The translations under genes were made by a program, and so were the position numbers. The notes beneath the pieces are model-generated. The model saw only the letters and a list, made by a program, of their open reading frames with translations, was not told the DNA's origin and did not search any database. Shown here piece by piece: positions 3,463 through 25,438 of a stretch of 25,438 nucleotides of DNA; positions within the stretch are counted from its first letter, which is position 1; every line of letters begins with the position of its first letter. Where the stretch lies: positions 1 to 25,438 of IMG/VR virus record IMGVR_UViG_3300014499_000031. One strand, written 5' to 3'. The stretch is from a virus.

Positions 3463-3684
3463 ATGGAAGGTGTAGATGTTTACGATATTAAGAAAATAAA
3501 GCTAGATAAAACGCCTAGGCCAGCACAGATAAAATTGTTAGAATTCATAAAAGAATCTATCAAATCTAATCACAAAGGTATTATAGTCGATGCTCCAGTT
3601 GGGTGTTTAACGAAAAATGAAAAAATCAATATATATGTATTAAAAGATATAAACATTGATCATGACATTAAAAAAACATTATGA
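3463..3684 (+). CDS. DinG/XPD-like helicase, extein piece 1 plus short N-intein (73 aa)
   Basis: Residues 1-47 are the N-terminus of a superfamily 2 helicase and stop in the middle of the P-loop (GIIVDAPVG). Residue 48 is Cys, starting a block-A-like intein segment (CLTKNEKINIYVLKD) that ends at residue 73 with TGA. The missing half of the P-loop, SGKS, appears at 5304 directly after an intein C-terminus (ISNHN). Joined, they give DAPVGSGKS. The piece thus encodes 47 extein residues and a 26-residue N-intein, too short to be a functional helicase alone. The next gene starts inside its end (ATG 3662). The helicase function is established below from the other pieces; trans-splicing is inferred. 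Confidence 0.85.
   Translation: MEGVDVYDIKKIKLDKTPRPAQIKLLEFIKESIKSNHKGIIVDAPVGCLTKNEKINIYVLKDINIDHDIKKTL
3604..3681 (+). other. Split intein 1, N-terminal fragment (26 aa)
   Basis: It begins with the catalytic Cys1 (CLTKNEKINI, block A) immediately after the P-loop Gly and ends at the ORF stop. Block B is not in this piece, so the split point lies between blocks A and B. A 25-residue N-intein of this kind is known from the AceL-TerL intein; most natural split inteins have N fragments near 100 residues. Confidence 0.8.
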
Positions 3685-4864
3685 AATTTCAAAAGCTATA
3701 AGAAAAATAAAAAATAATTGTAATTATGATTATATTTATAATTTTATAATTGAATATAACGACGAATTAAACTTAAATTTATCTAAAATCGATGAATGGA
3801 TTAAAGAAGTATTAAATAAAATAATTTCTTCTAAAAAAGAATCTTTAAATTTTAATTTTTTGAATTTAAAATACAAAAAAACTTCTAAAGAATATTGGTT
3901 GATACGTGGATGGAATGAAGATTATAGTATAAATAAAGCAAAAGAATGTAATAAAGTATACTCTCATAAAATACAATTAAAAGAAAATGGTTATAGTGAT
4001 GAAGAAATAAAAAATATAATGCTTAAAAGATTTAAAAAAGGAGCGCAAACCTTAAAGAATAGAAGTGATTATGATGAAATAAGAAAAAAATATGGACATA
4101 AAGTAGATAAATATTTAAAGAGAATAAATGCAAATACTAATAAAAATTATACATTAGAAGAAGCAAAAACTATAATATCAGAAATACAAAGAAAAAATTC
4201 AAAAAGAAAATGGGAAAAACATAAACTAAATCCTAGATTTGATAAAATAAACACCAGATTAGAATTTTATTTAGCTAAAGGTTTAAATAAAGAAGAAGCA
4301 GAAAATGCTTTATATGAGAGACAAATAAAAAATGGATTAAATTATTACATTAATAAATACGGTTTAGAAAAAGGAAAGGAAAAGTATAATAAAAGAATAG
4401 AAGAATACAGAAAAAAGATAAAATTACACAGAAAAAAGTATCCACAAAAATGGATTACATCAGGTAAAAGATATAGTGATAGTTCTAAACGTTTTTTTGA
4501 TAAAATTATAGAAGAAATAACTGAATTAAAAGATATGAAAATTTATTATGCCGAAAATGAATATTTTATTTTTGATGAAAAACGTAAAATATATTTCTAC
4601 GATTTTTATATTAAAGAACTTAATTTAATTATTGAATATAATGGATTAGTTTGGCATCCTAAAGAAAGAATACAAAAAAATTGGAAACATGTTTATACTA
4701 AAAAAAGTTCCGAAACTTATTATGATTATGATAGATATAAAGAGCAATTAGCTATAAGTAAAGGTATTGATATAATGTCAATATTTGAGGATGAATTAAT
4801 TTATAAAAGAAAACAAATAATAAATGAACTATATTCAAGAATTAACAAGATTAAAAATAATTAA
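3662..4864 (+). CDS. Homing endonuclease, Vsr-like type, in the gap of split intein 1 (400 aa)
   Basis: This free-standing gene lies exactly between the two fragments of split intein 1. The C-terminal third has FYDFYIKELNLIIEYNGLVW followed by HP, then DRYKEQLAISKGIDIMSIFED. That is the D...I-E-x-N-G...H...K...G...I-x-E-x-E pattern of Vsr-like (EDxHD) endonucleases, the type reported in 'fractured' split-intein genes. The N-terminal two thirds are basic DNA-binding modules: EYWLIRGWNEDYS near 80 and YYINKYGLEKGKEKYNKR near 230, the latter shared with the GIY-YIG protein at 23788. ATG 3662 is preferred over TTG 3656. Composition is visibly more AT-rich than the helicase exteins, as expected of a mobile gene. 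Likely role: cutting intein-free helicase alleles so the insertion spreads. Confidence 0.8.
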   Translation: MTLKKHYEISKAIRKIKNNCNYDYIYNFIIEYNDELNLNLSKIDEWIKEVLNKIISSKKESLNFNFLNLKYKKTSKEYWLIRGWNEDYSINKAKECNKVYSHKIQLKENGYSDEEIKNIMLKRFKKGAQTLKNRSDYDEIRKKYGHKVDKYLKRINANTNKNYTLEEAKTIISEIQRKNSKRKWEKHKLNPRFDKINTRLEFYLAKGLNKEEAENALYERQIKNGLNYYINKYGLEKGKEKYNKRIEEYRKKIKLHRKKYPQKWITSGKRYSDSSKRFFDKIIEEITELKDMKIYYAENEYFIFDEKRKIYFYDFYIKELNLIIEYNGLVWHPKERIQKNWKHVYTKKSSETYYDYDRYKEQLAISKGIDIMSIFEDELIYKRKQIINELYSRINKIKNN

Positions 4865-5981
4865 TGATTTATCATATTATTATGATACGAATTTTAATAA
4901 TTATAGTGATAATGAATTAAATATTTTTTTTACTAAACACGTAAAAAAAAATAAACAAGAAATTTCAATGATAGATTTTTATAATTTAAAAGATAAAACT
5001 GTATTAATTGAATCTTTAGACGGATTTGTAAAAGTCGGTAATAAAATAAAAAAGGAAAATTTAGAATGTTATACATTATCTTTAATAGATAATCGTAAAT
5101 TATCTGGGGCATTTAATCATTTAGTAGAAACTGAAAGAGGTTGGATAAAACTTATAGATTTAACTAAAAATGATTTTGTTTTAACTATTGATGGTTTTAT
5201 AAAAGTAAAAAATATAAGACAAATAAAAACACAAGAGGTATATGATTTAGAATGTTTGCATATAAATCATAGATATTTATCTAATGGTATTTCGAATCAT
5301 AATAGCGGCAAATCATATTTAGCAATTATGTTCATGGATTGGTTTAAAAAGAACTTTGACATTTCTGCTAATTTTGATGTCTTAACAAATTCAAAAATTC
5401 TTCAAGAGCAATATACCCAAGATTTTGATTTTATGAACTCTTTATGGGGCAAAGGATCATACCACTGCGATACATACGATACTGACTGCGGAACAGGCGG
5501 AGAATGGTGCAGAATACAAAATAAGAAGTGTGAAGCTTGTCCATACTCTACAGCAAAATATAGATTTGAAAATGGAGATGTAGCATTGACCAATTTTCAC
5601 TTGTTTCTGACATATATGGTTTATATGCCGCAAGCTTGGAAACGTTCGTCTAGAGTCTTAGTAGTAGATGAGTGTTTACATCCAGATACATTAATTACAA
5701 TAGGAGATGATACAAAAAAGAAAATTATTGATGTGAAAATTGGAGATATTGTTAAAACCGTCAATGAACAAACAAAAAAAATAGAAAATAAACCAGTAAA
5801 AAAATTACATAAAAACCTAAATAAAGGTCAACAAATGTATGAAATAGAGTTAGAAAATGGCTCTACTATTAAAATAACTGGCAACCATAAAGCTAAATTA
5901 ACCAATGGGCAATGGAAAAAAGTTGAAAATTTAGATGGAACCGAAGATATTTTATATATAAATGAAATAGAATCACATTAA
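4824..5981 (+). CDS. DinG/XPD-like helicase, middle piece: C-intein 1, extein 2, N-intein 2
   Basis: Three parts are read in order. Residues 1-160 end in ISNHN, a C-intein with His-Asn terminus; block B-like FNHLVETERGW is near residue 97. Residues 161-283 are helicase: SGKS completes the P-loop, then a Cys-rich region (YHC, TDC, EWC, KKCEACP), TNFHLFLTY, and the Walker B strand RVLVVDE. Residues 284-385 start CLHPDTLITIGDD and carry TGNHKAKL (block B), the N part of a second intein, ending in TAA. The cysteines (102, 109, 116, 123, 126 of the spliced protein) match the Fe-S domain of XPD/DinG helicases. The start could be ATG 4968 instead, giving a 112-residue C-intein. This piece would have to splice at both ends. 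Confidence 0.85.
   Translation: MNYIQELTRLKIINDLSYYYDTNFNNYSDNELNIFFTKHVKKNKQEISMIDFYNLKDKTVLIESLDGFVKVGNKIKKENLECYTLSLIDNRKLSGAFNHLVETERGWIKLIDLTKNDFVLTIDGFIKVKNIRQIKTQEVYDLECLHINHRYLSNGISNHNSGKSYLAIMFMDWFKKNFDISANFDVLTNSKILQEQYTQDFDFMNSLWGKGSYHCDTYDTDCGTGGEWCRIQNKKCEACPYSTAKYRFENGDVALTNFHLFLTYMVYMPQAWKRSSRVLVVDECLHPDTLITIGDDTKKKIIDVKIGDIVKTVNEQTKKIENKPVKKLHKNLNKGQQMYEIELENGSTIKITGNHKAKLTNGQWKKVENLDGTEDILYINEIESH
4968..5303 (+). other. Split intein 1, C-terminal fragment (112 aa or more)
   Basis: The segment contains TVLIESLDGFVKVG, a block-B-like SGAFNHLVETERGW, a further strand pair (FVLTIDGFIKVKNIRQI), block F (VYDLECLHINHRYL) and block G ending in NHN, followed by extein Ser (+1). From Met 4968 it is 112 residues. 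Together with the 26-residue N piece this gives a mini-intein of about 138 residues with no endonuclease domain. Confidence 0.8.
5673..5978 (+). other. Split intein 2, N-terminal fragment (102 aa)
   Basis: It starts with Cys1 (CLHPDTLITI) directly after the helicase Walker B VVDE. It contains block B as GSTIKITGNHKAKL (T-x-x-H) followed by WKKVENLDGTEDIL, then stops at TAA 5979-5981. The length and split point are those of canonical split inteins. Confidence 0.85.
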
Positions 5982-5988
5982 ACAAACA

Positions 5989-6834
5989 ATGAATAATGAA
6001 ACTAAGGATAAAATATATGATTTAATAGAATTATATAAAAATAGATTTGTGCACAGTTCTAATATAAAAAGTGATTTTTTAAAAATCTTAAATGACAATA
6101 ATATAATTTTTGAAGAATTAAAAGATAAAAAATTAAATGTCGAGATAGTATTTGATTATTTGACTCTTCATTGGAATAAAAAATGTGCATTAGAAGGATG
6201 TCATAATATAACACAAAGAAATACTTTATGGCCTAGAAGAAATGGGCCTAAAGTTATGTATAAAAAAACTTGCAGTAAAGAGTGTAATTCCAAATTAGCT
6301 TCAAATAGACAAAAAGGCACAAATAATACTTCTTTTAAAATGTCAGAAGAAGCAAAAATAGAAGCCAGAAAAAAGCAATCTATAACAATGAAAAGAAAAA
6401 TATTTGAAGGTGAATTTATTCCTAATATTACTAATTCTTGGGCCGGATCTAAAGTATCATTATTTATAAATGGTAAAAATATATATTATAGATCTAGTTG
6501 GGAAGCATTTTTTCATTTGTGTAATCCTCATTTAGATTATGAAAAAATAATTGTTAAGTATTTTAAAAACAAAGAAGAAAAAAATTATATTGTGGATTTT
6601 GTAGATTTCAATAAGAAAACAATTTATGAAATTAAACCAGAAAAATTAAAAAGAGGTTCTATATATGATACAAAATGTAATGCGGCTTTAGAATGGGCAA
6701 AAATAAATGGATATGTTTTTACTATAATAGATAATACTTGGTTTTTAGAAAATGTTAAAAAGAATAAACATTTATTGGGAGAACAGAATGATAAAAATAT
6801 AATCATGAAAAGATTAAACCAATTTGATAAATGA
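5989..6834 (+). CDS. Homing endonuclease, PD-(D/E)XK type with Cys4 zinc finger, in the gap of split intein 2 (281 aa)
   Basis: Four cysteines (C66, C71, C95, C99 in CALEGC and CSKEC) suggest a zinc finger in the first third. A basic, NUMOD-like stretch (NNTSFKMSEEAKIEARKKQS) follows. The nuclease core begins at about 167 with YRSSWEAFF (E172). YIVDFVD (D203) and IYEIKPEKL (E214, K216) then form a D...E-x-K catalytic motif of the PD-(D/E)XK fold, as in TnsA-like and phage homing enzymes. K229 and helix AALEWAKINGYVFTIID complete the fold. The gene fills the gap between the fragments of intein 2, starting 7 nt after the N-intein stop and ending in an ATGA overlap with the C-intein gene. Nuclease class differs from intein 1 and 3 enzymes. 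Confidence 0.8.
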   Translation: MNNETKDKIYDLIELYKNRFVHSSNIKSDFLKILNDNNIIFEELKDKKLNVEIVFDYLTLHWNKKCALEGCHNITQRNTLWPRRNGPKVMYKKTCSKECNSKLASNRQKGTNNTSFKMSEEAKIEARKKQSITMKRKIFEGEFIPNITNSWAGSKVSLFINGKNIYYRSSWEAFFHLCNPHLDYEKIIVKYFKNKEEKNYIVDFVDFNKKTIYEIKPEKLKRGSIYDTKCNAALEWAKINGYVFTIIDNTWFLENVKKNKHLLGEQNDKNIIMKRLNQFDK

Positions 6835-6935
6835 AGATTAAATCGATAAAAAAAATTAATTATTCTGATGATGTATATAATTTACACATAGAAGATAATC
6901 ATAACTATTTTGCTAATGATATATGTGTTAGTAAT
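6831..6935 (+). other. Split intein 2, C-terminal fragment (35 aa)
   Basis: It starts at its own ATG and ends in Val-Ser-Asn before the +1 Cys. The penultimate residue is Ser instead of the common His, which is seen in some active inteins. The length fits canonical C fragments of 35-40 residues. Confidence 0.85.
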
Positions 6936-8075
6936 TGTCATTCTTTAGAAGAAGTATTGTGCGACTTTATAACTACTAAGATAAGTAAGCCGTTATTGAA
7001 GAGAAATGGATTCACGGATCAAGAGGCAGAACAAGCCATGTGGTGTTTTGGAGAAAATCCTGAGAATATGGCTTTGGAAACATTCATAGAAATTGTTAAC
7101 GAATCATTTTTGCCTATAGTTAAGACGGTTATAAATCGCTTAGCAAGAGAAGCCGAAGAGACCAAGAGCATGCAGGCTATTAATTTCTTGCAAGGATTAA
7201 CTCAGCATCACTTCAAATGGGAGAATTTAGGATTAGAAGTACAAGCTAAGCCAAACAATTGGATATTAGAAGCTGAGAACATATATAAAAATGATAAGAA
7301 GACTGGAAAAGTGATAGACAAATACATAGAGTTCACCGCTCAACCGGTATGGGCATCTGAATATTTGGAAGAGAAAGTTTGGAGTCGTTATGATTTTATA
7401 TTATTTATGTCCGGCACTATTTTAAACAAAGAATTATTCTGTCAAATAAATGGATTGAATATTGAGGACACTGCATACATACAGATGGATTCTCCATTTC
7501 CTGTGGAAAATAGGCCTATTTATTATTTTTCTAAATTAGGCAAACAAACATTTGCCACAAAGGAATTAACATGGGGCAAGCAAAAGACGGTGTTAGAAAA
7601 AATATTGAAGAAATATAAGAACGAAAAAGGCATAGTTCACACCGCTAATTACGAGATACAAAAATGGGTCCACAAAGAGTTTGAGCATACTAATAGATTA
7701 TTGACTCATGATTCTACTAATAGGTCAGAATTGCTTCAAGAGCATTACAACAGCGAAGAGCCTACGGTATTAGTTTCTCCATCGCTGATGACAGGAATAG
7801 ATTTAGCCGACGATTATTCTAGGCATCAAACGATTCTTAAAATTCCTTATCCTAATTTGAAGAGCCAGAAGGTTAAGAAGAGAATGGAAACTAATAAAGA
7901 TTGGTACAGCTGGAGAACTGCTGTCGATATGCAACAATCTTATGGAAGAAGCATACGAAGCATGGAAGATCATGCAGATACTTATATGCTTGATGGATCA
8001 TTCACTAATTTTTTAAAATACAGTAGGAAATTTTTATTGGACTGGGTAGTAAATGCAATACAATTTGTAGATTAA
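6831..8075 (+). CDS. DinG/XPD-like helicase, C-intein 2 plus C-terminal extein (414 aa)
   Basis: Residues 1-35 are the C-terminal intein fragment (block F VYNLHIEDNHNYF, block G ending CVSN). Residue 36 is the +1 Cys of CHSLEEVL. Joined to VVDE from 5672 it gives VVDECHSLEE, a DECH-type Walker B box like DEAH in DinG/XPD. The remaining 379 residues carry helicase motifs IV-VI: FILFMSGTI, TVLVSPSLMTGIDLADD, and QQSYGRSIRSMEDHADTYML (Q-x-x-G-R-x-x-R with a late Asp). The complete spliced helicase would be 47+123+379 = 549 residues. A role in phage DNA replication or repair (5'-3' Fe-S helicase) is inferred from the family. The ATG overlaps the endonuclease stop (ATGA). Confidence 0.88.
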   Translation: MKIKSIKKINYSDDVYNLHIEDNHNYFANDICVSNCHSLEEVLCDFITTKISKPLLKRNGFTDQEAEQAMWCFGENPENMALETFIEIVNESFLPIVKTVINRLAREAEETKSMQAINFLQGLTQHHFKWENLGLEVQAKPNNWILEAENIYKNDKKTGKVIDKYIEFTAQPVWASEYLEEKVWSRYDFILFMSGTILNKELFCQINGLNIEDTAYIQMDSPFPVENRPIYYFSKLGKQTFATKELTWGKQKTVLEKILKKYKNEKGIVHTANYEIQKWVHKEFEHTNRLLTHDSTNRSELLQEHYNSEEPTVLVSPSLMTGIDLADDYSRHQTILKIPYPNLKSQKVKKRMETNKDWYSWRTAVDMQQSYGRSIRSMEDHADTYMLDGSFTNFLKYSRKFLLDWVVNAIQFVD

Positions 8076-12855: not shown

Positions 12856-13331
12856 TATATTTCTGATAAAATTTTAGGAACTTTCTTTTCTTCCACACGT
12901 AAGTTATTAGTATAATATATCTTAGGAATTTTAAATGTATTATGCGGATAACCGGCACAATAATTATATTTTTCTATAGTCCAATATTCCAAAAGAGTAT
13001 TTCTCATTCTCTCTAAATCTCCTTTTATGAAATTTTGAACTTTTAATAAATCTTCAGGAGTTTTTTCTTTATGTATGTCTATGCTTTTAGGATAATGATC
13101 AATAAAAAATAAATCATTATCATACTGATAATTTTCCATTTTCAATCTAATAGAATCTCCATGGTTTAAATTAATATTAAAATAAAATCCAGACTCTATT
13201 AAAACCAATTCTCCATTTATACGATGCCTTTTACTTTCTAAAAATTCATCATTAGAATGAGTTGCTTCAATTTTGGTAATAGAATAAATATGATCCGTGT
13301 TAATAGCGCTTCCTAATATTTCGACTATCAT
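12855..13331 (-). CDS. Hypothetical protein, 158 aa
   Basis: The function is unknown. It has a beta-rich N-terminal domain starting VEILGSAINTDHIYSITKIE and containing GELVLIESGFYFNINLNHGD. A helix (DLLKVQNFIKGDLERMRNT) and a short basic tail follow. The start shares its A with the TAA of the RNA ligase C-terminal piece (TAATG), so it is coupled to that gene. The similar N-terminus of the following 130-aa protein suggests an old tandem duplication. Confidence 0.7.
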   Translation of the reverse strand: MIVEILGSAINTDHIYSITKIEATHSNDEFLESKRHRINGELVLIESGFYFNINLNHGDSIRLKMENYQYDNDLFFIDHYPKSIDIHKEKTPEDLLKVQNFIKGDLERMRNTLLEYWTIEKYNYCAGYPHNTFKIPKIYYTNNLRVEEKKVPKILSEI

Positions 13332-13942
13332 TACTTCTTGCTATCATAGTGCTTATTAATAATTTTAAAAGATCCTTCAGCATGTTGAACTACAACGCCT
13401 TCGAATGGCTTGCCATTCAATTCGGTAATACCAGAAGAATAATGCTGTATGATTTCTTTGGTCAATACAACATCTTTAGCAATAATTTCTACTGTTGGAA
13501 GATTTAATTTTTCAGCAATGTTCAAGAAATAATATTTATCTCCTTTGCGAGCATATCTTCTTTCCTCTGTCAAATATACAGAGAACATAGCCCAGCCTGC
13601 AGGAAGTTTAGAGTGAGGATTCAATTCTAAGCCTTGTATTCCAATCCCATAAGATTCTCCGCGCAAACAAATAGAAATATTCTCTTCGGTACAAAACTCT
13701 ATTAATTTATTTTTAATATCATATCTTTCGATTTGATCGGTGTAACGGTTGCTGAATATCTCATGCAATTCTAAAGTGCGTCCTAATACTCCAAAACGTT
13801 TATCAGGAACATGATAAAAGAAACTACAATTGTGTACTAATATATTATTTGCAAAAAAATTGTTGTTATTTGCTACTTCAATATCATATCTTTTAGATTG
13901 AGATTGTATTTTTCTGATTGATTTTATTTTTACTATTTGCAT
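13331..13942 (-). CDS. RNA ligase (DRB0094/Rnl5-like), C-intein 3 plus C-terminal extein (203 aa)
   Basis: Residues 1-38 are an intein C fragment (block F RYDIEVANNNNFFANN, then ILVHN) and residue 39 is the +1 Cys of CSFFYHVPDKRFGVLGRT. The 165 extein residues carry the remaining ligase motifs: ICLRGESYGIGIQG (motif III), KPFEGVVVQH (motif IV, E-G-V-V) and GSFKIINKHY (motif V, K-x-x-N/K). The catalytic Lys motif is in the other piece (ends at 15304). Spliced, the enzyme is 163+165 = 328 residues, a normal length. The ATG lies inside the 3' end of the endonuclease gene, overlapping by 50 nt. Confidence 0.85.
   Translation of the reverse strand: MQIVKIKSIRKIQSQSKRYDIEVANNNNFFANNILVHNCSFFYHVPDKRFGVLGRTLELHEIFSNRYTDQIERYDIKNKLIEFCTEENISICLRGESYGIGIQGLELNPHSKLPAGWAMFSVYLTEERRYARKGDKYYFLNIAEKLNLPTVEIIAKDVVLTKEIIQHYSSGITELNGKPFEGVVVQHAEGSFKIINKHYDSKK
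13829..13942 (-). other. Split intein 3, C-terminal fragment (38 aa)
   Basis: It starts at its own ATG and ends with Val-His-Asn before Cys+1, with a full block F/G consensus. It is canonical in length. It pairs with the 98-residue N fragment at 15010-15303. Confidence 0.87.
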
Positions 13943-14936
13943 ATTGATTTATTTTTATTATTAATAATTCTTTAATTTCGTCATTTGTTTTTTTATGTAT
14001 TTCATTTTCCCATATTGTTATAATATTATGACCTTTTTCCTTAGCATAATCATGTTTTAGTTTATCTCTTTTCCAAATGTCCTCAGCCTTTATGTGAGCA
14101 AATTTAAAAAATACAATATCATCGGCTTTATAAAAATTGGGATTAGCATGCCAGTAATTTCCATTCATTTCGATTATTAAATTGAAATCAGGTAAATAAA
14201 TGTCATAATAATATATTTTGTTGTTATATCTATTTTGAGTTTCTTTTGGTTTTTTAATTTTAAATTGATGAATATAAGTAAAATTTAATTCTGATAATAT
14301 TTCAACCAATTTTATTTCTGGCTTACTAATTTTATAGCCTTTGTGTTGTCCATTAGCTATTTTTTCTTTAGATTTATCGGAATGTATATTTTTATTAAAA
14401 AAATCTTCTTTTTCTTTATCTGATAAAGCATAAAACCATTTTTTCCATCCTATTGCTGTTTTTTCATGTGCTTCTTTAGTATTTATTTGTTCGATTATTT
14501 CTTTTATTTGAAATACATTATCTACGCCGTATTTATCCTTTACTGTTTTATTACGTTTTTCAAAAATTTTAGTTCCTCTAGATAAAACATTAACAGTGCC
14601 ATATTTTTTTAAACACGTTTCTTTGTTCTTTTTTTGACCTATAGTAAGAGCACTTTCGGAAAACGTTCTTTTTTTAATATTAAACCATTCCAAAAGAAAA
14701 AATACTAAATCCCAAGGTACATTTAATTTTTTATAATCTGGTAAACTATGTGTTTTATAATGGTTTTCAAAATTTTCTTTATTATTTATAAAATTAAACG
14801 TGTTTAAATAATTATATTGAATAAATTCGAATTTAATTTGTTTTTTACTTATACCATTTATGATTTCATTATTATAACACTTTATATAATGAGGACTTCT
14901 TGCATGGTTTTTACATTTAGGACATGTTGTTTTCAT
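13893..14936 (-). CDS. Homing endonuclease, Vsr-like type, in the gap of split intein 3 (347 aa)
   Basis: The N-terminus has a CPKC knuckle (C5, C8) with a further Cys at 20. Repeated K-Y-G-x-x-N modules (KETCLKKYGTVNVLSR near 106 and KDKYGVDNVFQ near 133) are typical DNA-binding motifs of phage homing enzymes. The C-terminal nuclease reads YYYDIYLPDFNLIIEMNGNY with WH, then DIWKRDKLKHDYAKEKGHNI and TIWENEI. This is a D...I-E-M-N-G...H...D-x-x-K...G...I-x-E-x-E pattern, as in Vsr-like/EDxHD enzymes and in the intein 1 endonuclease. It lies exactly between the two intein 3 fragments and likely targets intein-free RNA ligase genes. It is visibly AT-richer than the ligase exteins. Confidence 0.8.
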   Translation of the reverse strand: MKTTCPKCKNHARSPHYIKCYNNEIINGISKKQIKFEFIQYNYLNTFNFINNKENFENHYKTHSLPDYKKLNVPWDLVFFLLEWFNIKKRTFSESALTIGQKKNKETCLKKYGTVNVLSRGTKIFEKRNKTVKDKYGVDNVFQIKEIIEQINTKEAHEKTAIGWKKWFYALSDKEKEDFFNKNIHSDKSKEKIANGQHKGYKISKPEIKLVEILSELNFTYIHQFKIKKPKETQNRYNNKIYYYDIYLPDFNLIIEMNGNYWHANPNFYKADDIVFFKFAHIKAEDIWKRDKLKHDYAKEKGHNIITIWENEIHKKTNDEIKELLIIKINQYANSKNKINQKNTISI

Positions 14937-14974
14937 TTTCTTTAATCAGACAGAATTTAATCTATATATTAAAG

Positions 14975-15006
14975 AAAGTTGACAGATTTAGTAAAATATC
15001 AACTTT
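14975..15006 (-). repeat. 8-bp inverted repeat between N-intein 3 stop and endonuclease start
   Basis: AAAGTTGA (14975-14982) pairs with TCAACTTT (14999-15006) around a 16-nt loop, directly after the TAA of the N-intein piece. An AATATATAGATT promoter-like element follows on the minus strand. It may attenuate, or sequester translation of, the endonuclease gene. Confidence 0.45.
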
Positions 15007-15792
15007 TTATAAAACTACTACATTTTCATCTCCTTTTAAATCTTTTAATTGTCTATAACATTTTAATTCCGGTAAATAAACTCTATGATTCGAGGTTAAT
15101 GTTAATATTTCTCCGGTTTCTGTTTCTAATTCAAACCAATCATTATCGTTTTCTTGTATTAAATGGTTTTCAATCTTTTGCCATTCTTCTTCATTACTTT
15201 CGGTATTAAAACATTTTACTTTGCCTTTATACTTAGAATCGCATATTTCTTTAATTGTTTTAATACCATCTTTGGTTTCAACTAATGTTTCTTCTGAAAG
15301 ACAACTTTGCCCGTCCACTTTTAATCCGATATCTACAAGTTGTCCATAAGGCAATTTGTGATCTGGAAAATTTTCGTAACGTTCTTCGTCAGTTTTAGGT
15401 TGTTGATATGGCAATCCGCCTTTTACTTTTAGATCATTTGGTGCTGGTGGCTCATAGTGAGTAACTCCAATCATAGCGGCAACATCAGTTCCTACTTCAA
15501 GATCTTTTAAATCATTTCCATTAGGAAGAATATCAAACGGTATCACAATTCCCTCAGACCATTCTTTTCTTAAAAGACATGCTTTAATACGTTTAGGAGA
15601 ATACTTGCGGTATTCTTCAGTCCATGATTCCACTGGCAACAGAGAATCAGGTCTAACATAAACAATTTTTTCTCCGCCTTTATAAAGGCCTTTTTGAGTT
15701 ACGCATTGAAACCCTAAGACTTTTACTAAGTCTAATTTGTCGGCATTCCAGTGAGCCTTAACTTCTCCTATTAATTCGATACTTGCATCCAT
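15007..15792 (-). CDS. RNA ligase (DRB0094/Rnl5-like), N-terminal extein plus N-intein 3 (261 aa)
   Basis: The first 163 residues match the layout of the DRB0094-type RNA ligases. An N-terminal OB-like domain carries ADKLDLVKVLGFQCVTQKGL and VYVRPDSLLP. Next comes RIKACLLRKEWSEGIVIPF, then the nucleotidyl-acceptor motif LKVDGQS with Lys158. Directly after that Ser, Cys164 starts an intein (CLSEETLVETKDG) running to TAA. Joined to CSFFYHV at 13828 it gives KVDGQSCSFFY. The family seals RNA nicks using ATP. The gene heads a leftward operon divergent from the 15862 gene; a TATAATAG element lies at 15810-15817 on the minus strand. Neither piece alone has all ligase motifs. Confidence 0.87.
   Translation of the reverse strand: MDASIELIGEVKAHWNADKLDLVKVLGFQCVTQKGLYKGGEKIVYVRPDSLLPVESWTEEYRKYSPKRIKACLLRKEWSEGIVIPFDILPNGNDLKDLEVGTDVAAMIGVTHYEPPAPNDLKVKGGLPYQQPKTDEERYENFPDHKLPYGQLVDIGLKVDGQSCLSEETLVETKDGIKTIKEICDSKYKGKVKCFNTESNEEEWQKIENHLIQENDNDWFELETETGEILTLTSNHRVYLPELKCYRQLKDLKGDENVVVL
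15010..15303 (-). other. Split intein 3, N-terminal fragment (98 aa)
   Basis: It opens with Cys1 (CLSEETLVETKDGIKTI, block A). Block B reads GEILTLTSNHRVYL, with T-x-x-H, followed by YRQLKDLKGDENVVV. It sits immediately after the KVDGQS ligase motif. Architecture is canonical. Confidence 0.87.
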
Positions 15793-20572: not shown

Positions 20573-21232
20573 ATGATTGAATATCCAAAGTTCGCATATA
20601 TTTTCCCTCCTCGTGCCGAGAACGCGGTTCCAACCACTGAACTTGATGTATATGATAATGGTTATTATTTAGCTCAGCCTAAATTAAATGGGGATTGTGT
20701 TGAGATATACACAAACGGGATCGAAGTCATTGTGATGGATAGGCACAAAAAACAATTCAATAAGTGCAATGATACTCTTTTAGAAAAATATAAACATCTT
20801 CATCGTGGAACTAAAGGCAATTGGATGATTCTTGTAGGAGAATTCATGATCAAATCTAAAAGGGATCGTTTTGATAAAATATGGAATGAAAAGTTTGTTA
20901 TCTTCGACATCATTGCATACGATGGAATGCAATTGATCGGAAAGACATTCAAGCAAAGAGTAGAATTACTCGATGAACTTTATGGTCTAAATGAAGGATT
21001 CAACCAATCTGATGATAAATTTCTTCTTAAAACCGACATTGAAGATATTTATAGAGTTAAATCCTTTTTCGAAAATTTTAAAGCATTATACGAAGAATTA
21101 ATTCAGATAGATATGTATGAAGGATTCGTCTTTAAAAGATGTAGCGCGCCATTAGAGAACGGACAAAAAGTAAATAATAATGCACTCTCACAATTTAAAG
21201 TGCGGAAACAGACAAAAAATTATTTATACTGA
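20573..21232 (+). CDS. Adenylating DNA/RNA ligase-like nucleotidyltransferase, 219 aa
   Basis: Nucleotidyltransferase motifs occur in order: AQPKLNGDCVEIY (motif I; Lys then L-N-G in place of x-D-G), RHKKQFN (motif Ia region), MILVGEFMIK (motif III), KFVIFDIIAYDG (IIIa), MYEGFVFKR (motif IV) and SQFKVRKQ (motif V, K-x-R/K). These are the conserved residues of the ATP-dependent ligase/capping superfamily. At 219 residues it is essentially a minimal adenylation domain without a C-terminal OB fold. The Asp-to-Asn change in motif I is unusual. Whether it seals RNA or DNA cannot be told. Its last 13 nt overlap the convergent GIY-YIG gene. Confidence 0.75.
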   Translation: MIEYPKFAYIFPPRAENAVPTTELDVYDNGYYLAQPKLNGDCVEIYTNGIEVIVMDRHKKQFNKCNDTLLEKYKHLHRGTKGNWMILVGEFMIKSKRDRFDKIWNEKFVIFDIIAYDGMQLIGKTFKQRVELLDELYGLNEGFNQSDDKFLLKTDIEDIYRVKSFFENFKALYEELIQIDMYEGFVFKRCSAPLENGQKVNNNALSQFKVRKQTKNYLY

Positions 21233-22290
21233 TTCATGTGTGAACATAATTCATTTATCCATTTATTTCTTACACAAGCATTATAGGCGTTAATATTATT
21301 TATACCAAATTCTTTTTTGGTTTTATATTTTAGTGCTATTGCTCCACATTTTTCTTTAGTCCAATATACAGATTGGACTGTTTTATTCATGTGCGAACAC
21401 AATTCATTTATCCATTTATATCTACCACATGCTATATAACAATGAATATCATTAATTCTAAATTCTTTTTTAGTTCCGTATTTTAGTGCTATTAATCTAC
21501 ATTTTTCTTTTGTCCATTTTTTAGTTCCTCCAATTCCTCCGGTTTTATTTTTGTTTAAAATGATCCATCCTTTATTTTTATAATCATTTACAAAATTCCC
21601 TTCTTCTATTTTAGCTAATTCTACATCTATATAATCAATTAATTTTTTGAATATAGGAGTTAAATTCGTTTTTTGAATATGTTTAAAAACTTGACTTTTA
21701 GGATTTGTTAAATGTTTTATATTTCTATCTTCTAAATTTCCAGTCAATCCGACATAAACATGATTGTTCGAAAATTCATAACTATAAATGCATCTTTTAT
21801 GAGAATTTCCTATAACTTTCATGTGTGAACATATTTCTTCTAACCAATTATTTATTTTTGCCCATCTATATGAAATTTTACTTCCGATTTTATAATGCAT
21901 TTTTATTTGATATTTTAAAGCTTCTTCTTTGCATTTTTCTTTAGTCCAAAAGTCTTTAGATTTATAAGTCATCCCATTACATACATAGTTCATGTGTGAA
22001 CATATTTCATTTAGCCATCCATTTTTATTAGCTACTCCATGTGCTATTTTATCTTTGATATTAAATTCGTTTCTAGTTTTATATGCTAATGCTATTTCTC
22101 TACATTTTTCTTTTGTATAATATCCTTTAGGTTTTATTTTTTGAATCATATGAGAACAAACAAAATCTAGCCATCCGTTTCTTTTTGCCGCCTGATATGC
22201 ATAAGAATTTCTTCCGAATTTTTTTCTGCTTTCGTATTTTAATGCTTCCTCTTGGCATTTATCTAAAGTCCAATAATTTTTTACTTTCAT
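21220..22290 (-). CDS. GIY-YIG endonuclease with five flanking CSHM repeats, 356 aa
   Basis: A central GIY-YIG core (residues 167-250) reads CIYSYEFSNNHVYVGLTGNL with DRNIKH, then AKIEEGNFVNDYKNKGWIIL. It supplies the Tyr pair, Arg189 and a Glu near 229. It is flanked by five copies of a 43-residue module, W/Y-T-x-E-K-C...A-L-x-Y...F...W-x-x-x-x-C-S-H-M. Copies lie at 7-48, 58-100, 115-157, 259-301 and 310-352, three before and two after the core. These are probably DNA-binding units giving long-site specificity. It is a likely free-standing homing endonuclease. It converges on, and slightly overlaps, the ligase-like gene. It is AT-rich like the other endonucleases here. Confidence 0.85.
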   Translation of the reverse strand: MKVKNYWTLDKCQEEALKYESRKKFGRNSYAYQAAKRNGWLDFVCSHMIQKIKPKGYYTKEKCREIALAYKTRNEFNIKDKIAHGVANKNGWLNEICSHMNYVCNGMTYKSKDFWTKEKCKEEALKYQIKMHYKIGSKISYRWAKINNWLEEICSHMKVIGNSHKRCIYSYEFSNNHVYVGLTGNLEDRNIKHLTNPKSQVFKHIQKTNLTPIFKKLIDYIDVELAKIEEGNFVNDYKNKGWIILNKNKTGGIGGTKKWTKEKCRLIALKYGTKKEFRINDIHCYIACGRYKWINELCSHMNKTVQSVYWTKEKCGAIALKYKTKKEFGINNINAYNACVRNKWINELCSHMNQYK

Positions 22291-22586: not shown

Positions 22587-23729
22587 ATGGCCACAAAAAA
22601 ACCAGCAACAACTAATTACACTCCTGATGAACAGCTTTATTTAAAAGCTAAGGAAGCTTATTACAAAGGCGAACCAATCATGTCCGACGAAGATTTTGAC
22701 ATCTTAGAAGATACCTTAAGAAACGAAGATTCGTTTGTTGTTGAAATAGTTGGAACTTCTAAAAAAGGTCCTAAATTAGATGTGCCGCATCCTACTCCAA
22801 TGCTTTCTTTGGATAAGGTAAAATTTAAAAAGAATTATGTGCCTTACCAAGAGGCAGTTCATAAATTATATTCTAAAGGCAAAGGCAAAATTATATATGA
22901 GCCTAAATTGGATGGAAATGCTATCACTATCACATACGAAAACGGAAACTTGATTTCCATAGCTTCTCGTGGAACTGGAGTATTAGGACAAAATTATACC
23001 GACAAATTAAAAAGCAAAGTCCCAGCAAAAATAAAAGATTTTACCGGCGAAGTTCGTGGAGAATGCGTGATTGATACAACATTGTTTGATCAAAAATATT
23101 TAACCTCAGAAGACCCAACCGCTAAGACATACAAAAATGCCAGAAATTTCGTAGCCGGTATTTTAAGCTCTGATATTGATAAAACAGTATTAGAGAAATT
23201 AAAAGACATTGATTTCGTTGCATTCGATGTTAAAGGATTAGAATTGGAAGAACCTTCTAAATGGTTAGCTTCAAAAGGATTTGAAGTATTAGATTTTACT
23301 GTATTTACTATTGAAATAAATGAAGAAACATTTGTTCGTATCTATAAAGAATTTGCTGAATATCGCGAGACTTGCAAATATCAATTGGATGGTATCGTTG
23401 CTAAGTTTGTCGACCCTAAATTAAGAGAAGAATTAGGAGAAACAGGACATCATCCTAATTGGGCATTAGCAATTAAATTCGTATCTCAACAAGTTTCTAC
23501 CGGAATAAATGGCATTGAATTAGGAATGACCAAACGTGGAGAACTTGCACCAGTTGCTCTTTTAGATCCTGTAGAGCTGATGGGTTCCACTGTAAGACGA
23601 GCATCATTATATAATGCTTCATGGATGATTGCTAATCGTTGTTATCCTGGAGCTGAAGTTTCTATCATAAAATCTGGAGACATCATTCCTGTTATAACTG
23701 GAATTGTTAAACCGGCTCCGATTCTATAA
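22587..23729 (+). CDS. ligA: NAD-dependent DNA ligase, N-terminal half (adenylation and OB domains), 380 aa
   Basis: The domain Ia signature for NAD binding is present (AYYKGEPIMSDEDFDILEDT), then HPTPMLSLDKV. The catalytic motif is EPKLDGNAI with Lys107. GEVRGECVI (motif III), KYQLDGIVAKF (motif IV) and ALAIKF (motif V) follow. The OB domain reads MTKRGELAPVALLDPVELMG and ends with GDIIPVITGIVKP. The protein stops exactly where a normal LigA enters its zinc finger, HhH and BRCT domains; these come from the gene at 24841. So NAD-dependent ligase is encoded in two parts, as also known for phage T5. It should adenylate itself, but needs the other half for efficient DNA binding. ATG 22587 is 3 nt after the 60-aa gene. 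Confidence 0.93.
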   Translation: MATKKPATTNYTPDEQLYLKAKEAYYKGEPIMSDEDFDILEDTLRNEDSFVVEIVGTSKKGPKLDVPHPTPMLSLDKVKFKKNYVPYQEAVHKLYSKGKGKIIYEPKLDGNAITITYENGNLISIASRGTGVLGQNYTDKLKSKVPAKIKDFTGEVRGECVIDTTLFDQKYLTSEDPTAKTYKNARNFVAGILSSDIDKTVLEKLKDIDFVAFDVKGLELEEPSKWLASKGFEVLDFTVFTIEINEETFVRIYKEFAEYRETCKYQLDGIVAKFVDPKLREELGETGHHPNWALAIKFVSQQVSTGINGIELGMTKRGELAPVALLDPVELMGSTVRRASLYNASWMIANRCYPGAEVSIIKSGDIIPVITGIVKPAPIL

Positions 23730-23753
23730 TACTACCAGATTTTATAATAAAAA

Positions 23754-23781
23754 CTTTAATATATAATAAAAAATATTAAAG
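23754..23781 (+). repeat. 9-bp inverted repeat before the GIY-YIG gene
   Basis: CTTTAATAT (23754-23762) and ATATTAAAG (23773-23781) form a perfect stem with a 10-nt A/T loop, ending 6 nt before the endonuclease ATG. A TATATAATA promoter-like element overlaps it. It could fold in read-through mRNA and limit endonuclease translation. Confidence 0.55.
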
Positions 23782-23787
23782 TAAATT

Positions 23788-24696
23788 ATGAAAATATGTG
23801 GTATTTATTCATGGACAAATACAATAAATGGTAAAAAATATATTGGAGAAAGTAAAAATATCGACACTCGATGGATTAAACATGAGCAAAATGCTAAATT
23901 AGGAATAAGAAGTAAATTTTATAATGCTTTAAGAAAGTACGGCAGTAATATTTTTGTTAAAGAAATTTTAGAATTGTGTGATAAAGATTCTGATAAAATG
24001 TATATGTTAGAAAGAGAGAAATTTTATATGTTAAAATTCGATTCAGTTAAAAATGGATATAATTCATCTATTTTATATGATACTATATCCAATAATATAA
24101 ATAAAGTCGAAATTTATAAAAAGATAAGTAAAAATAAAAAGGAATTAAATAAATCTTGGATATACAAAGATAATAAATCTAAATGTGTTAATGCTGATAT
24201 ATTAAATAATTATTTAAAAGATGGATGGAATTTAGGTAGAAAATTTAGTCAAATACATAAACAAAATATTTCTAAAGCACTTAAAAAATTATGGAATGAA
24301 GGTTATATGCCTTCTGAAGAATCTAGAGCAAAAATGAGTACTTTCAAAGATAAAAACCATACTGAAAAAACATTAAAGAAAATGCGTAAAGCATGTAAAA
24401 ATCAATATACATTAAAATGGTTTGTAAAAAGATATGGCAAATTAGATGGATTTTTAAAATATAATGATAAATGTAAAAAACTTAAAAATCGAAAAATGGC
24501 TAACGGTATTGATTGGTTTATTAGTAGATATGGAATAGAAGAAGGCATTAAAAAATATCAATTAAAACAAGAAAAATTAAGTAAGAGAAAAAAGACATTT
24601 ATAAATAATAGTAATGTATGTAAACTTATATCTTTAAATGAATTAGAATCGTATATTAATAATGGATGGACTAAAGGTATGTTAAAAGCCTGTTAA
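23788..24696 (+). CDS. GIY-YIG homing endonuclease between the DNA ligase halves, 302 aa
   Basis: The N-terminal GIY-YIG domain reads CGIYSWTNTINGKKYIGESK with R28, E75 (MLEREKFY) and N92 (NGYNSS), the full catalytic set. Next come a segment WIYKDNKSKCVNADILNNYL with KDGW (124-147), a NUMOD3-like FSQIHKQNISKALKKLW (153-169), and two repeats WFVKRYGKLDGFLKYNDK (211-228) and WFISRYGIEEGIKKYQLK (243-260). A second ELESYINNGWTKG copy ends the protein. The two-repeat module also occurs in the intein 1 endonuclease. It sits exactly between the ligase halves, and its last codons and stop lie within the promoter repeat at 24690. It is a likely agent of, or passenger at, the ligase split. Confidence 0.88.
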   Translation: MKICGIYSWTNTINGKKYIGESKNIDTRWIKHEQNAKLGIRSKFYNALRKYGSNIFVKEILELCDKDSDKMYMLEREKFYMLKFDSVKNGYNSSILYDTISNNINKVEIYKKISKNKKELNKSWIYKDNKSKCVNADILNNYLKDGWNLGRKFSQIHKQNISKALKKLWNEGYMPSEESRAKMSTFKDKNHTEKTLKKMRKACKNQYTLKWFVKRYGKLDGFLKYNDKCKKLKNRKMANGIDWFISRYGIEEGIKKYQLKQEKLSKRKKTFINNSNVCKLISLNELESYINNGWTKGMLKAC

Positions 24697-24736
24697 TAAC
24701 TTTATTTTAAAGTTTCGAATAAAAGTGGTATATTTA
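24690..24736. repeat. Promoter-containing direct repeat, copy 2
   Basis: This 47-nt copy of the sequence at 22349-22396 lacks one T and contains the endonuclease stop codon at its left edge. TATATTTA is at 24729-24736. It probably drives the C-terminal ligase gene 105 nt downstream. Confidence 0.9.
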
Positions 24737-24840
24737 TAACTTGAACCAATAAAAGAACCTAAATCAAATTTAATATTACTGTTGAGAAAATTATGACAAA
24801 AATTTTAAGAAATTAAAAATACTAATCTAAAATAGAAAAC

Positions 24841-25438
24841 ATGAACAAGAACAATGAAATACCGGAAGAATTACTCACAATATTAATATCATCTAAAACA
24901 TTAGATGAAAATGGAAAATGGCATGGTCACAAAGTGACTTACAATGGAGTGAACTTAATGGTTGAAGGTTTTGAAAATACTCCAGAATACAAAGCAATCA
25001 GAATGAACACCGCCATAACAGCTCTAGGATTCAAAGGAATTGGCCCTGCTACCGCCGAATTGTTGAGCAGTTTAAAACTGTCTGACATCATGGCTCAGAA
25101 CCCTGAAGGTCTTAAAATAATGCTTTTAAATACCGGCAATTTTAAAGAAGGAAGAGAATTGACTCTTATTATAGAAGCATTCTTTGCTTTGACTGAAGTT
25201 GAACTATGGCAGGTGATTTATTCATTCGGTTACAGAAATTGTGGCAAAACAATCAGCAAAGAGTTAGCCAAATATATGCTTAAACAAGATCATTCCTTCA
25301 AAGGATTAGAAAAGAAAGTGGTAGAAGCATTTGTAAATGACGAGGAACGCATTAAAGAAGTTAAAGAGTTTGTAGAGATATTAGAGAACAATAATGTAAA
25401 AGTTAACAAACCAAAAAGCACTGAAGGATTAGTTACCT
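24841..25438 (+). CDS. NAD-dependent DNA ligase, C-terminal half (HhH region), partial
   Basis: The frame is open from ATG 24841 to the window edge (199 codons). Residues 58-73 contain ALGFKGIGPATAELL, and further on VIYSFGYRNCGKTISKELAK occurs. These are helix-hairpin-helix units like those of the LigA C-terminal domain (GIRxVGxxxAxxLAxxF). A BRCT domain would be expected beyond the window. The zinc-finger part that should open this half appears degenerate: residues 1-50 (EIPEELLTILISSKTLDENG and onward) have no Cys. It follows the GIY-YIG gene behind its own promoter repeat and a 104-nt leader. It should join non-covalently with the product of 22587-23729. No intein residues are seen at the break. 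Confidence 0.8.
   Translation, partial: MNKNNEIPEELLTILISSKTLDENGKWHGHKVTYNGVNLMVEGFENTPEYKAIRMNTAITALGFKGIGPATAELLSSLKLSDIMAQNPEGLKIMLLNTGNFKEGRELTLIIEAFFALTEVELWQVIYSFGYRNCGKTISKELAKYMLKQDHSFKGLEKKVVEAFVNDEERIKEVKEFVEILENNNVKVNKPKSTEGLVT

What the first reader, a model, noticed from the sequence alone, without database searches (positions are those of the whole stretch)
3463..8075. One Fe-S helicase encoded by three extein pieces, two split inteins and two endonuclease genes
A DinG/XPD-like helicase can be reconstituted only by two protein trans-splicing events: DAPVG + SGKS (P-loop) and VVDE + CHSLEE (DECH box). The 47+123+379 residue exteins assemble to 549 residues with all core motifs and a Cys-rich Fe-S region. 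Each intein gap holds an intact homing endonuclease gene whose start or stop overlaps its neighbours. Split inteins with endonuclease genes in the gap ('fractured genes') are known from metagenomic phage data, but a doubly fractured gene, whose middle piece must splice at both ends, is exceptional.
Basis: partly seen in the sequence, partly recalled or inferred. Interest (0 to 1): 0.92.

Follow-up and report, generated by a model that had tools for sequence, protein, structure and literature searches.

The report
Phage helicase gene broken twice
A large-phage DNA helicase is encoded as three separate protein pieces that two different self-splicing protein elements (split inteins), each travelling with its own DNA-cutting gene, are predicted to stitch back into one enzyme; the breaks fall exactly in its two ATP-using motifs.

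Summary
At 3463-8075 an XPD/DinG-like helicase is split into 47+123+379 residues by two split inteins, with an intact endonuclease gene in each gap. The joined pieces match helicase family PHROG 2488 end to end (E=4e-97). The closest relative, in another phage contig, has the gene in one piece with nothing at either break.

Each break also occurs alone in sister helicases: cassette 1 (Walker A) in L092 and L093, cassette 2 (DExH box) in L035. Intein parts are 68-86% identical to the window's while the helicase parts are 39-52%, so each cassette probably moved sideways, as homing elements do. Intein 1 belongs with VidaL, with a conserved N-part of about 15 residues. Intein 2 is canonically split. 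Endonuclease 1 is EDxHD/Vsr-like; endonuclease 2 is PD-(D/E)XK.

None was found in a named phage isolate or in the papers I could search. Fractured genes are known; double fracture with differently split inteins looks like an undescribed variant. The founding paper (Dassa 2009) was not readable here. Splicing is inferred, not shown.

The parts
3463..3603 (+). Extein 1 (47 aa) of the helicase, ends DAPVG inside Walker A
   Evidence: colinear with uninterrupted L002
3604..3684 (+). IntN1, 26 aa plus stop; conserved core CLTKNxKIxIYxLK of about 15 aa
   Evidence: same core in L092, L093
3662..4864 (+). Endonuclease gene 1 (400 aa from ATG 3662), EDxHD/Vsr-like; overlaps piece 1 by 23 nt and piece 2 by 41 nt
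4824..5303 (+). IntC1, 160 aa, with a conserved N-terminal extension of about 48 aa before the VidaL-like core (4968-5303); ends HN
5304..5672 (+). Extein 2 (123 aa): SGKS to VVDE, holds the four invariant cysteines
5673..5981 (+). IntN2, 102 aa plus stop, canonical Hint-type N part
   Evidence: Pfam Hint 6.7e-10, Intein_splicing 2.3e-9
5989..6834 (+). Endonuclease gene 2 (281 aa), zinc-finger-like CxxC plus PD-(D/E)XK domain, TnsA-like fold
6831..6935 (+). IntC2, 35 aa, ends VSN
   Evidence: Pfam Intein_splicing 7.9e-6; joined intein 52.2 bits
6936..8075 (+). Extein 3 (379 aa): CHSLEE onward, Helicase_C_2 domain with QSYGRSIRS motif VI
   Evidence: Helicase_C_2 1.1e-19, PHROG 2488 5.5e-63

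Best explanation
A large-phage XPD/DinG-like helicase gene was invaded separately by two mobile cassettes, each a split intein with a free-standing homing endonuclease gene in its gap. Cassette 1 (VidaL-type intein with a very short IntN, EDxHD endonuclease) sits in Walker A (DAPVG|SGKS). Cassette 2 (canonically split intein, PD-(D/E)XK endonuclease) sits in the DExH box (DE|CH). The three pieces are made separately and joined by two protein trans-splicing reactions into a 549-residue helicase; the middle piece (IntC1-extein-IntN2) must splice at both ends. Shown here: anatomy, empty-site relatives, each cassette alone in sister genes, signs of lateral movement, purifying selection. Inferred: that both inteins splice, that the endonucleases cut the empty sites, and that only the spliced product is an active ATPase.
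For: Joined exteins match one helicase family end to end and XPD structures. The closest relative L002 is uninterrupted at both sites. L092/L093 carry only cassette 1 and L035 only cassette 2, with the same layout. Intein parts 68-86% against exteins 39-52% identical. dN/dS 0.11-0.25 for IntC1, IntN2, IntC2 and below 0.5 for both endonucleases. Catalytic Cys1, terminal Asn, block-B His and Ser/Cys +1 are present in both inteins. Endonuclease folds: I-Bth0305I and TnsA. GC boundaries coincide with three of four junctions. Related cassettes occur in PhoH, UvsX/RecA and UvsW-type genes.
Against: No direct evidence of splicing. IntC2 ends Ser-Asn instead of the usual His-Asn, although this is typical of the DE|CH group and IntC2 is the best conserved part. 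IntN1 is too short for a significant match by itself. The contig is only 25 kb with no reads.
Confidence: 0.86

Rival explanations
1. Genes in pieces: the pieces assemble as a non-covalent complex without splicing, as in the nrdA gene of phage Aeh1 broken by mobE.
For: Such unspliced split enzymes exist in phages (PMC2988022), and the NAD-dependent DNA ligase in this same window is broken around a GIY-YIG gene with no intein motif.
Against: Intein halves are complete, conserved and under purifying selection, which would be needless without splicing. Both breaks lie inside ATP-site motifs, with intein residues left on each end.
Confidence: 0.06
2. Assembly or sequencing artefact: a single ORF with two contiguous inteins containing endonuclease domains, interrupted by false frameshifts.
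For: Contiguous relatives of intein 1 exist (L011); no reads were available.
Against: Four frame changes would be needed. Independent contigs and finished phage genomes show the same broken layouts with overlapping ORFs.
Confidence: 0.02
3. The helicase fragments are a decaying pseudogene and the phage uses another helicase.
For: Only 25 kb of the genome is held, so a second copy cannot be excluded.
Against: All three exteins are intact with helicase motifs and the four cysteines. Window against L002: pN/pS 0.17-0.38 in each extein, dN/dS 0.11 for extein 3, dS saturated for the others.
Confidence: 0.05

Closest known systems
Fractured genes with split inteins and free-standing endonuclease genes (Dassa et al. 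2009, doi 10.1093/nar/gkp095; not readable here, known from citing papers and memory)
   Same: Gene broken within a split intein, endonuclease gene in the gap, uninterrupted homologues
   Different: Two such breaks in one gene, with two differently split inteins and two endonuclease families; whether that paper reports a double case could not be checked
Fractured PolB gene of Pseudomonas jumbo phage MIJ3 (PMC6892783)
   Same: Split intein plus endonuclease gene in a large-phage replication gene
   Different: Single break, HNH endonuclease
VidaL atypically split intein (PDB 6vgv)
   Same: Intein 1 is its closest solved relative (E 3e-8); short IntN, Cys1, P-loop-type relatives in UvsX
   Different: IntC1 has an extra conserved N-terminal extension; different host gene
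Doubly broken UvsX/RecA-type genes in IMG/VR contigs found here (L094-L097, L156-L159)
   Same: Three pieces, VidaL-type break at the P-loop and a second canonical split intein
   Different: Other gene; second break at SGG|C or a TNH motif, and some second gaps lack an endonuclease gene
UvsW-type helicase of Salmonella phage STP4-a and relatives (L009)
   Same: DE|CH break with an intein-2-type split intein and an endonuclease-2 homologue
   Different: Single break; other helicase family
Engineered tandem protein trans-splicing from three segments (PMC7210297, PMC12707363)
   Same: Middle segment flanked by IntC and IntN of two different inteins
   Different: Those are designed; this is natural

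Membership tests
Fractured gene with split intein | One host gene divided between separate ORFs that are whole in relatives | tested here: met
   L002 and most of 80 viral relatives whole
Fractured gene with split intein | IntN on the upstream and IntC on the downstream piece at the break | tested here: met
Fractured gene with split intein | Free-standing endonuclease gene in the gap | tested here: met
Fractured gene with split intein | Trans-splicing yields the whole protein | not testable with these tools
   needs expression
VidaL-type atypically split intein | Short IntN split after the first strands, with a large IntC | tested here: met
   IntN1 26 aa in the window, 15 aa in L092 and L093; published natural range 15-37 aa
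VidaL-type atypically split intein | Sequence relationship to VidaL | tested here: met
   6vgv E 3e-8
Canonical class 1 split intein (intein 2) | Cys1, TxxH block B, terminal Asn, Cys +1, IntN about 100 aa and IntC about 35 aa | tested here: met
Canonical class 1 split intein (intein 2) | Penultimate His (usual, not obligatory) | tested here: not met
   Ser-Asn in the window, L035 and many DE|CH relatives
XPD/DinG-like Fe-S helicase | Walker A, DExH, Helicase_C_2 and motif VI | tested here: met
XPD/DinG-like Fe-S helicase | Four conserved cysteines of the Fe-S domain | tested here: met
   C55, C62, C76, C79 of extein 2 invariant
XPD/DinG-like Fe-S helicase | Bound Fe-S cluster | not testable with these tools
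   needs purified protein
EDxHD homing endonuclease (endonuclease 1) | Invariant acidic/His residues and Vsr-like fold | tested here: met
   E300, D314, E325, H332, D357 invariant in 21 homologues; best fold hit I-Bth0305I, prob 1.00, E 0.018; Vsr E 0.0035 by profile
PD-(D/E)XK endonuclease (endonuclease 2) | D...(D/E)xK core and fold | tested here: met
   D203, E214 invariant, K216 nearly so; TnsA prob 1.00, E 0.003
Homing endonucleases (both) | Cleavage of the empty site | not testable with these tools
   needs in vitro cleavage
Group I or II intron | Intron RNA in the gaps | tested here: not met
   No Rfam match at gathering threshold in the window; intein coding reaches both junctions

The most novel reading that the evidence does not exclude
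Large phages carry a recurrent class of doubly fractured ATPase genes assembled by natural tandem trans-splicing. The middle piece has the order IntC-extein-IntN, which would cyclise itself if the two inteins could pair. In the cases seen here an S1-split VidaL-type intein is combined with a canonically split one, which should prevent this; selection for such orthogonality would then decide which second cassette can enter an already broken gene.
Probability: 0.3. Interest if true: 0.82.

Novelty: new variant of a known kind. Interest (0 to 1): 0.62.

Why it matters
It is a natural three-segment protein assembly, previously an engineering feat, using two inteins that must not cross-react. That offers two naturally paired, presumably orthogonal split inteins, one with a minimal N-fragment of about 15 residues, useful for protein semisynthesis. 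It also shows mobile elements converging on the two most conserved ATPase motifs, where imprecise loss is lethal and similar targets recur in many genes. Gene callers would list the pieces as five unrelated proteins, so such enzymes may be widely missed in phage annotation.

Tried and rejected
Intron explanation: no Rfam match. Assembly error: rejected by frames and independent contigs. Uniqueness of double breakage: rejected after the intein-profile scan of fetched loci. Pfam scan of endonuclease 1 homologues gave only scattered weak hits; its family came from fold and invariant residues. A PDB profile search for endonuclease 2 gave only E 0.22; the fold search resolved it. A genome-contig scan with the IntC1 profile found no relative, so cassette 1 was seen only in viral records. 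A tblastn of the doubly broken UvsX middle piece found only one isolate record covering 80% of it, SCTP-2, in which both inteins are contiguous; PA5oct-type phages have one break. Literature searches found no natural gene with two split inteins, but Dassa 2009 is not held. The table prints dN/dS as 0.00 where dS is saturated; those values are undefined and were not used. The chance probability of the short IntN1 was not computed; its support is conservation in relatives.

Full report
OBSERVATION. The window is a 25,438-bp virus record of IMG/VR. Between 3463 and 8075 lie five consecutive ORFs in three frames with short overlaps. Pieces 1, 2 and 3 carry helicase parts of 47, 123 and 379 aa, 549 in all. 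Piece 1 ends in a 26-aa IntN, piece 2 begins with a 160-aa IntC and ends in a 102-aa IntN, and piece 3 begins with a 35-aa IntC. Each gap holds an intact endonuclease gene. Exteins are 33-36% GC and the inserted DNA 17-25%. A segmentation that knew nothing of the junctions placed boundaries at 3613, 5686 and 6937, against predicted junctions at 3604, 5673 and 6936; the fourth (5304) was missed by 142 nt (the best model by BIC keeps only the last three boundaries).

HOST PROTEIN. Joined exteins match PHROG 2488 from 15 to 546 of 549 (E 3.9e-97), gain a ResIII match spanning both junctions and a DEAD_2 match above its cut-off, and match XPD structures. Four cysteines of extein 2 are invariant in relatives. 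A tblastn against named phages aligns the joined exteins in one piece to megaphage helicases at 35-40% identity and to phage G gp73 at 29%.

EMPTY SITES. The closest relative, L002, on a 313,708-bp contig, has the helicase whole (DAPVGIGKS and IIDEAH) with no gap at either junction. Of 80 viral relatives, 78 are uninterrupted at both sites (one of them, L012, is the L002 locus again), L035 is broken only at DE|C, L070 only at the P-loop, and none at both. A further relative, L093, is broken only at the P-loop. A more distant relative, L208, has a third break site, GIIH|C.

TWO CASSETTES. Cassette 1: L092 (the same contig as L070) and L093 carry the same short-IntN intein, the same endonuclease family and the same layout. 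The window shares 71% identity with both in IntC1 but only 39-46% in the exteins. Cassette 2: L035 shares IntN2 at 68% and IntC2 at 86%, with exteins at 39-52%. By contrast L092 and L093 are 72-80% alike in exteins and 79% in IntC1. Inteins more alike than their host proteins indicate lateral transfer. Synonymous divergence is also lower in the cassettes than in the exteins, although the AT-rich cassettes make that comparison rough. dN/dS is below 1 for every intein and endonuclease part, so the parts have been kept functional.

THE SAME CASSETTES ELSEWHERE. Intein-1 relatives sit at P-loops of PhoH (L007), UvsX/RecA (L008; contiguous in L011) and others; intein-2 relatives sit at DE|CH boxes, including the UvsW-type helicase of Salmonella phages (L009). 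Intein 1 is closest to VidaL, whose natural IntN is 16 aa; natural atypical IntN lengths run from 15 to 37 aa (PMC13014065). Endonuclease 1 has an invariant E/D/E/H/D pattern and a fold closest to I-Bth0305I, the type member of the EDxHD family. Endonuclease 2 has a D...ExK core and a fold closest to TnsA.

MECHANISM. Inferred: the ORFs are translated from one operon; IntN1 pairs with IntC1 and IntN2 with IntC2; two splicing events restore Walker A and motif II. Each break lies inside an ATP-site motif, so unspliced pieces should be inactive. The middle piece has the IntC-extein-IntN order that cyclises proteins when the halves are cognate (established intein knowledge, the principle of split-intein cyclisation). 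Here the halves belong to inteins split at different places, which should prevent it; this was not tested. Each endonuclease is inferred to cut cassette-free alleles and so drive copying of its cassette.

HOW UNUSUAL. Scanning the fetched loci for ORFs with IntC first and IntN last gave further doubly broken genes, of the UvsX/RecA type: complete three-piece sets in L094/L095, L096, L097, L156 and L157-L159, and partial ones in L114, L123 and L165. These loci were fetched with the intein-1 profile, so their shared VidaL-type first break reflects the search. In L157-L159, and in L094/L095, both gaps hold a homologue of endonuclease 1 or a large ORF in its place. A tblastn found no such gene in isolates. 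Literature searches found none, but the founding paper was not readable. The finding is therefore a new variant of a known kind: real and striking, but not unique.

LIMITS. No splicing or cleavage data; no reads; a 25-kb contig without a known host. The +1 residues needed for splicing also occur in some intein-free relatives: among the 80 the P-loop position is V 37, S 20, T 19, I 3, and the DE(x) position A 61, S 10, C 8, G 1 (counts include the two broken genes). They are permissive rather than diagnostic.

Noticed in passing
window 13331-15792 (-): A third split intein: an RNA ligase broken right after its catalytic KxDG motif (KVDGQS|C), with an EDxHD-like endonuclease gene 14936-13893 in the gap and IntC plus ligase C part at 13942-13331.
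   Followed up: partly
window 22587-25437 (+): NAD-dependent DNA ligase broken between its OB fold and the rest around a GIY-YIG gene (23788-24696) with no intein motif seen; either unspliced genes-in-pieces or an unrecognised intron.
   Followed up: partly
window 4824-4967: IntC1 carries a conserved helical-looking extension of about 48 aa upstream of the VidaL-like core; similar in L092, L093, L007, L096, L097 but lacking in L008, L114, L158. Function unknown.
   Followed up: no
L208 4058-6867: A distant DinG-like helicase broken at a third site, GIIH|C, with an endonuclease-like gene in the gap.
   Followed up: partly
L117 1424-10836: PolB, UvsX/RecA-type and DnaB/gp41-type genes all broken within about 9 kb, each gap holding an endonuclease-1 homologue.
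   Followed up: partly
L099 2641-5280: PhoH gene broken by a split intein at its P-loop without an endonuclease gene, and carrying a contiguous intein at VILDE|C: the same two motifs as in the window.
   Followed up: partly
L158 4454-11778: A doubly broken UvsX and a UvsW-type helicase broken at DE|C lie about 1.2 kb apart.
   Followed up: partly
window 21220-22290 (-): A 356-aa ORF with several copies of a repeated WTKEKC motif around a GIY-YIG-like stretch, next to the ligase genes.
   Followed up: no
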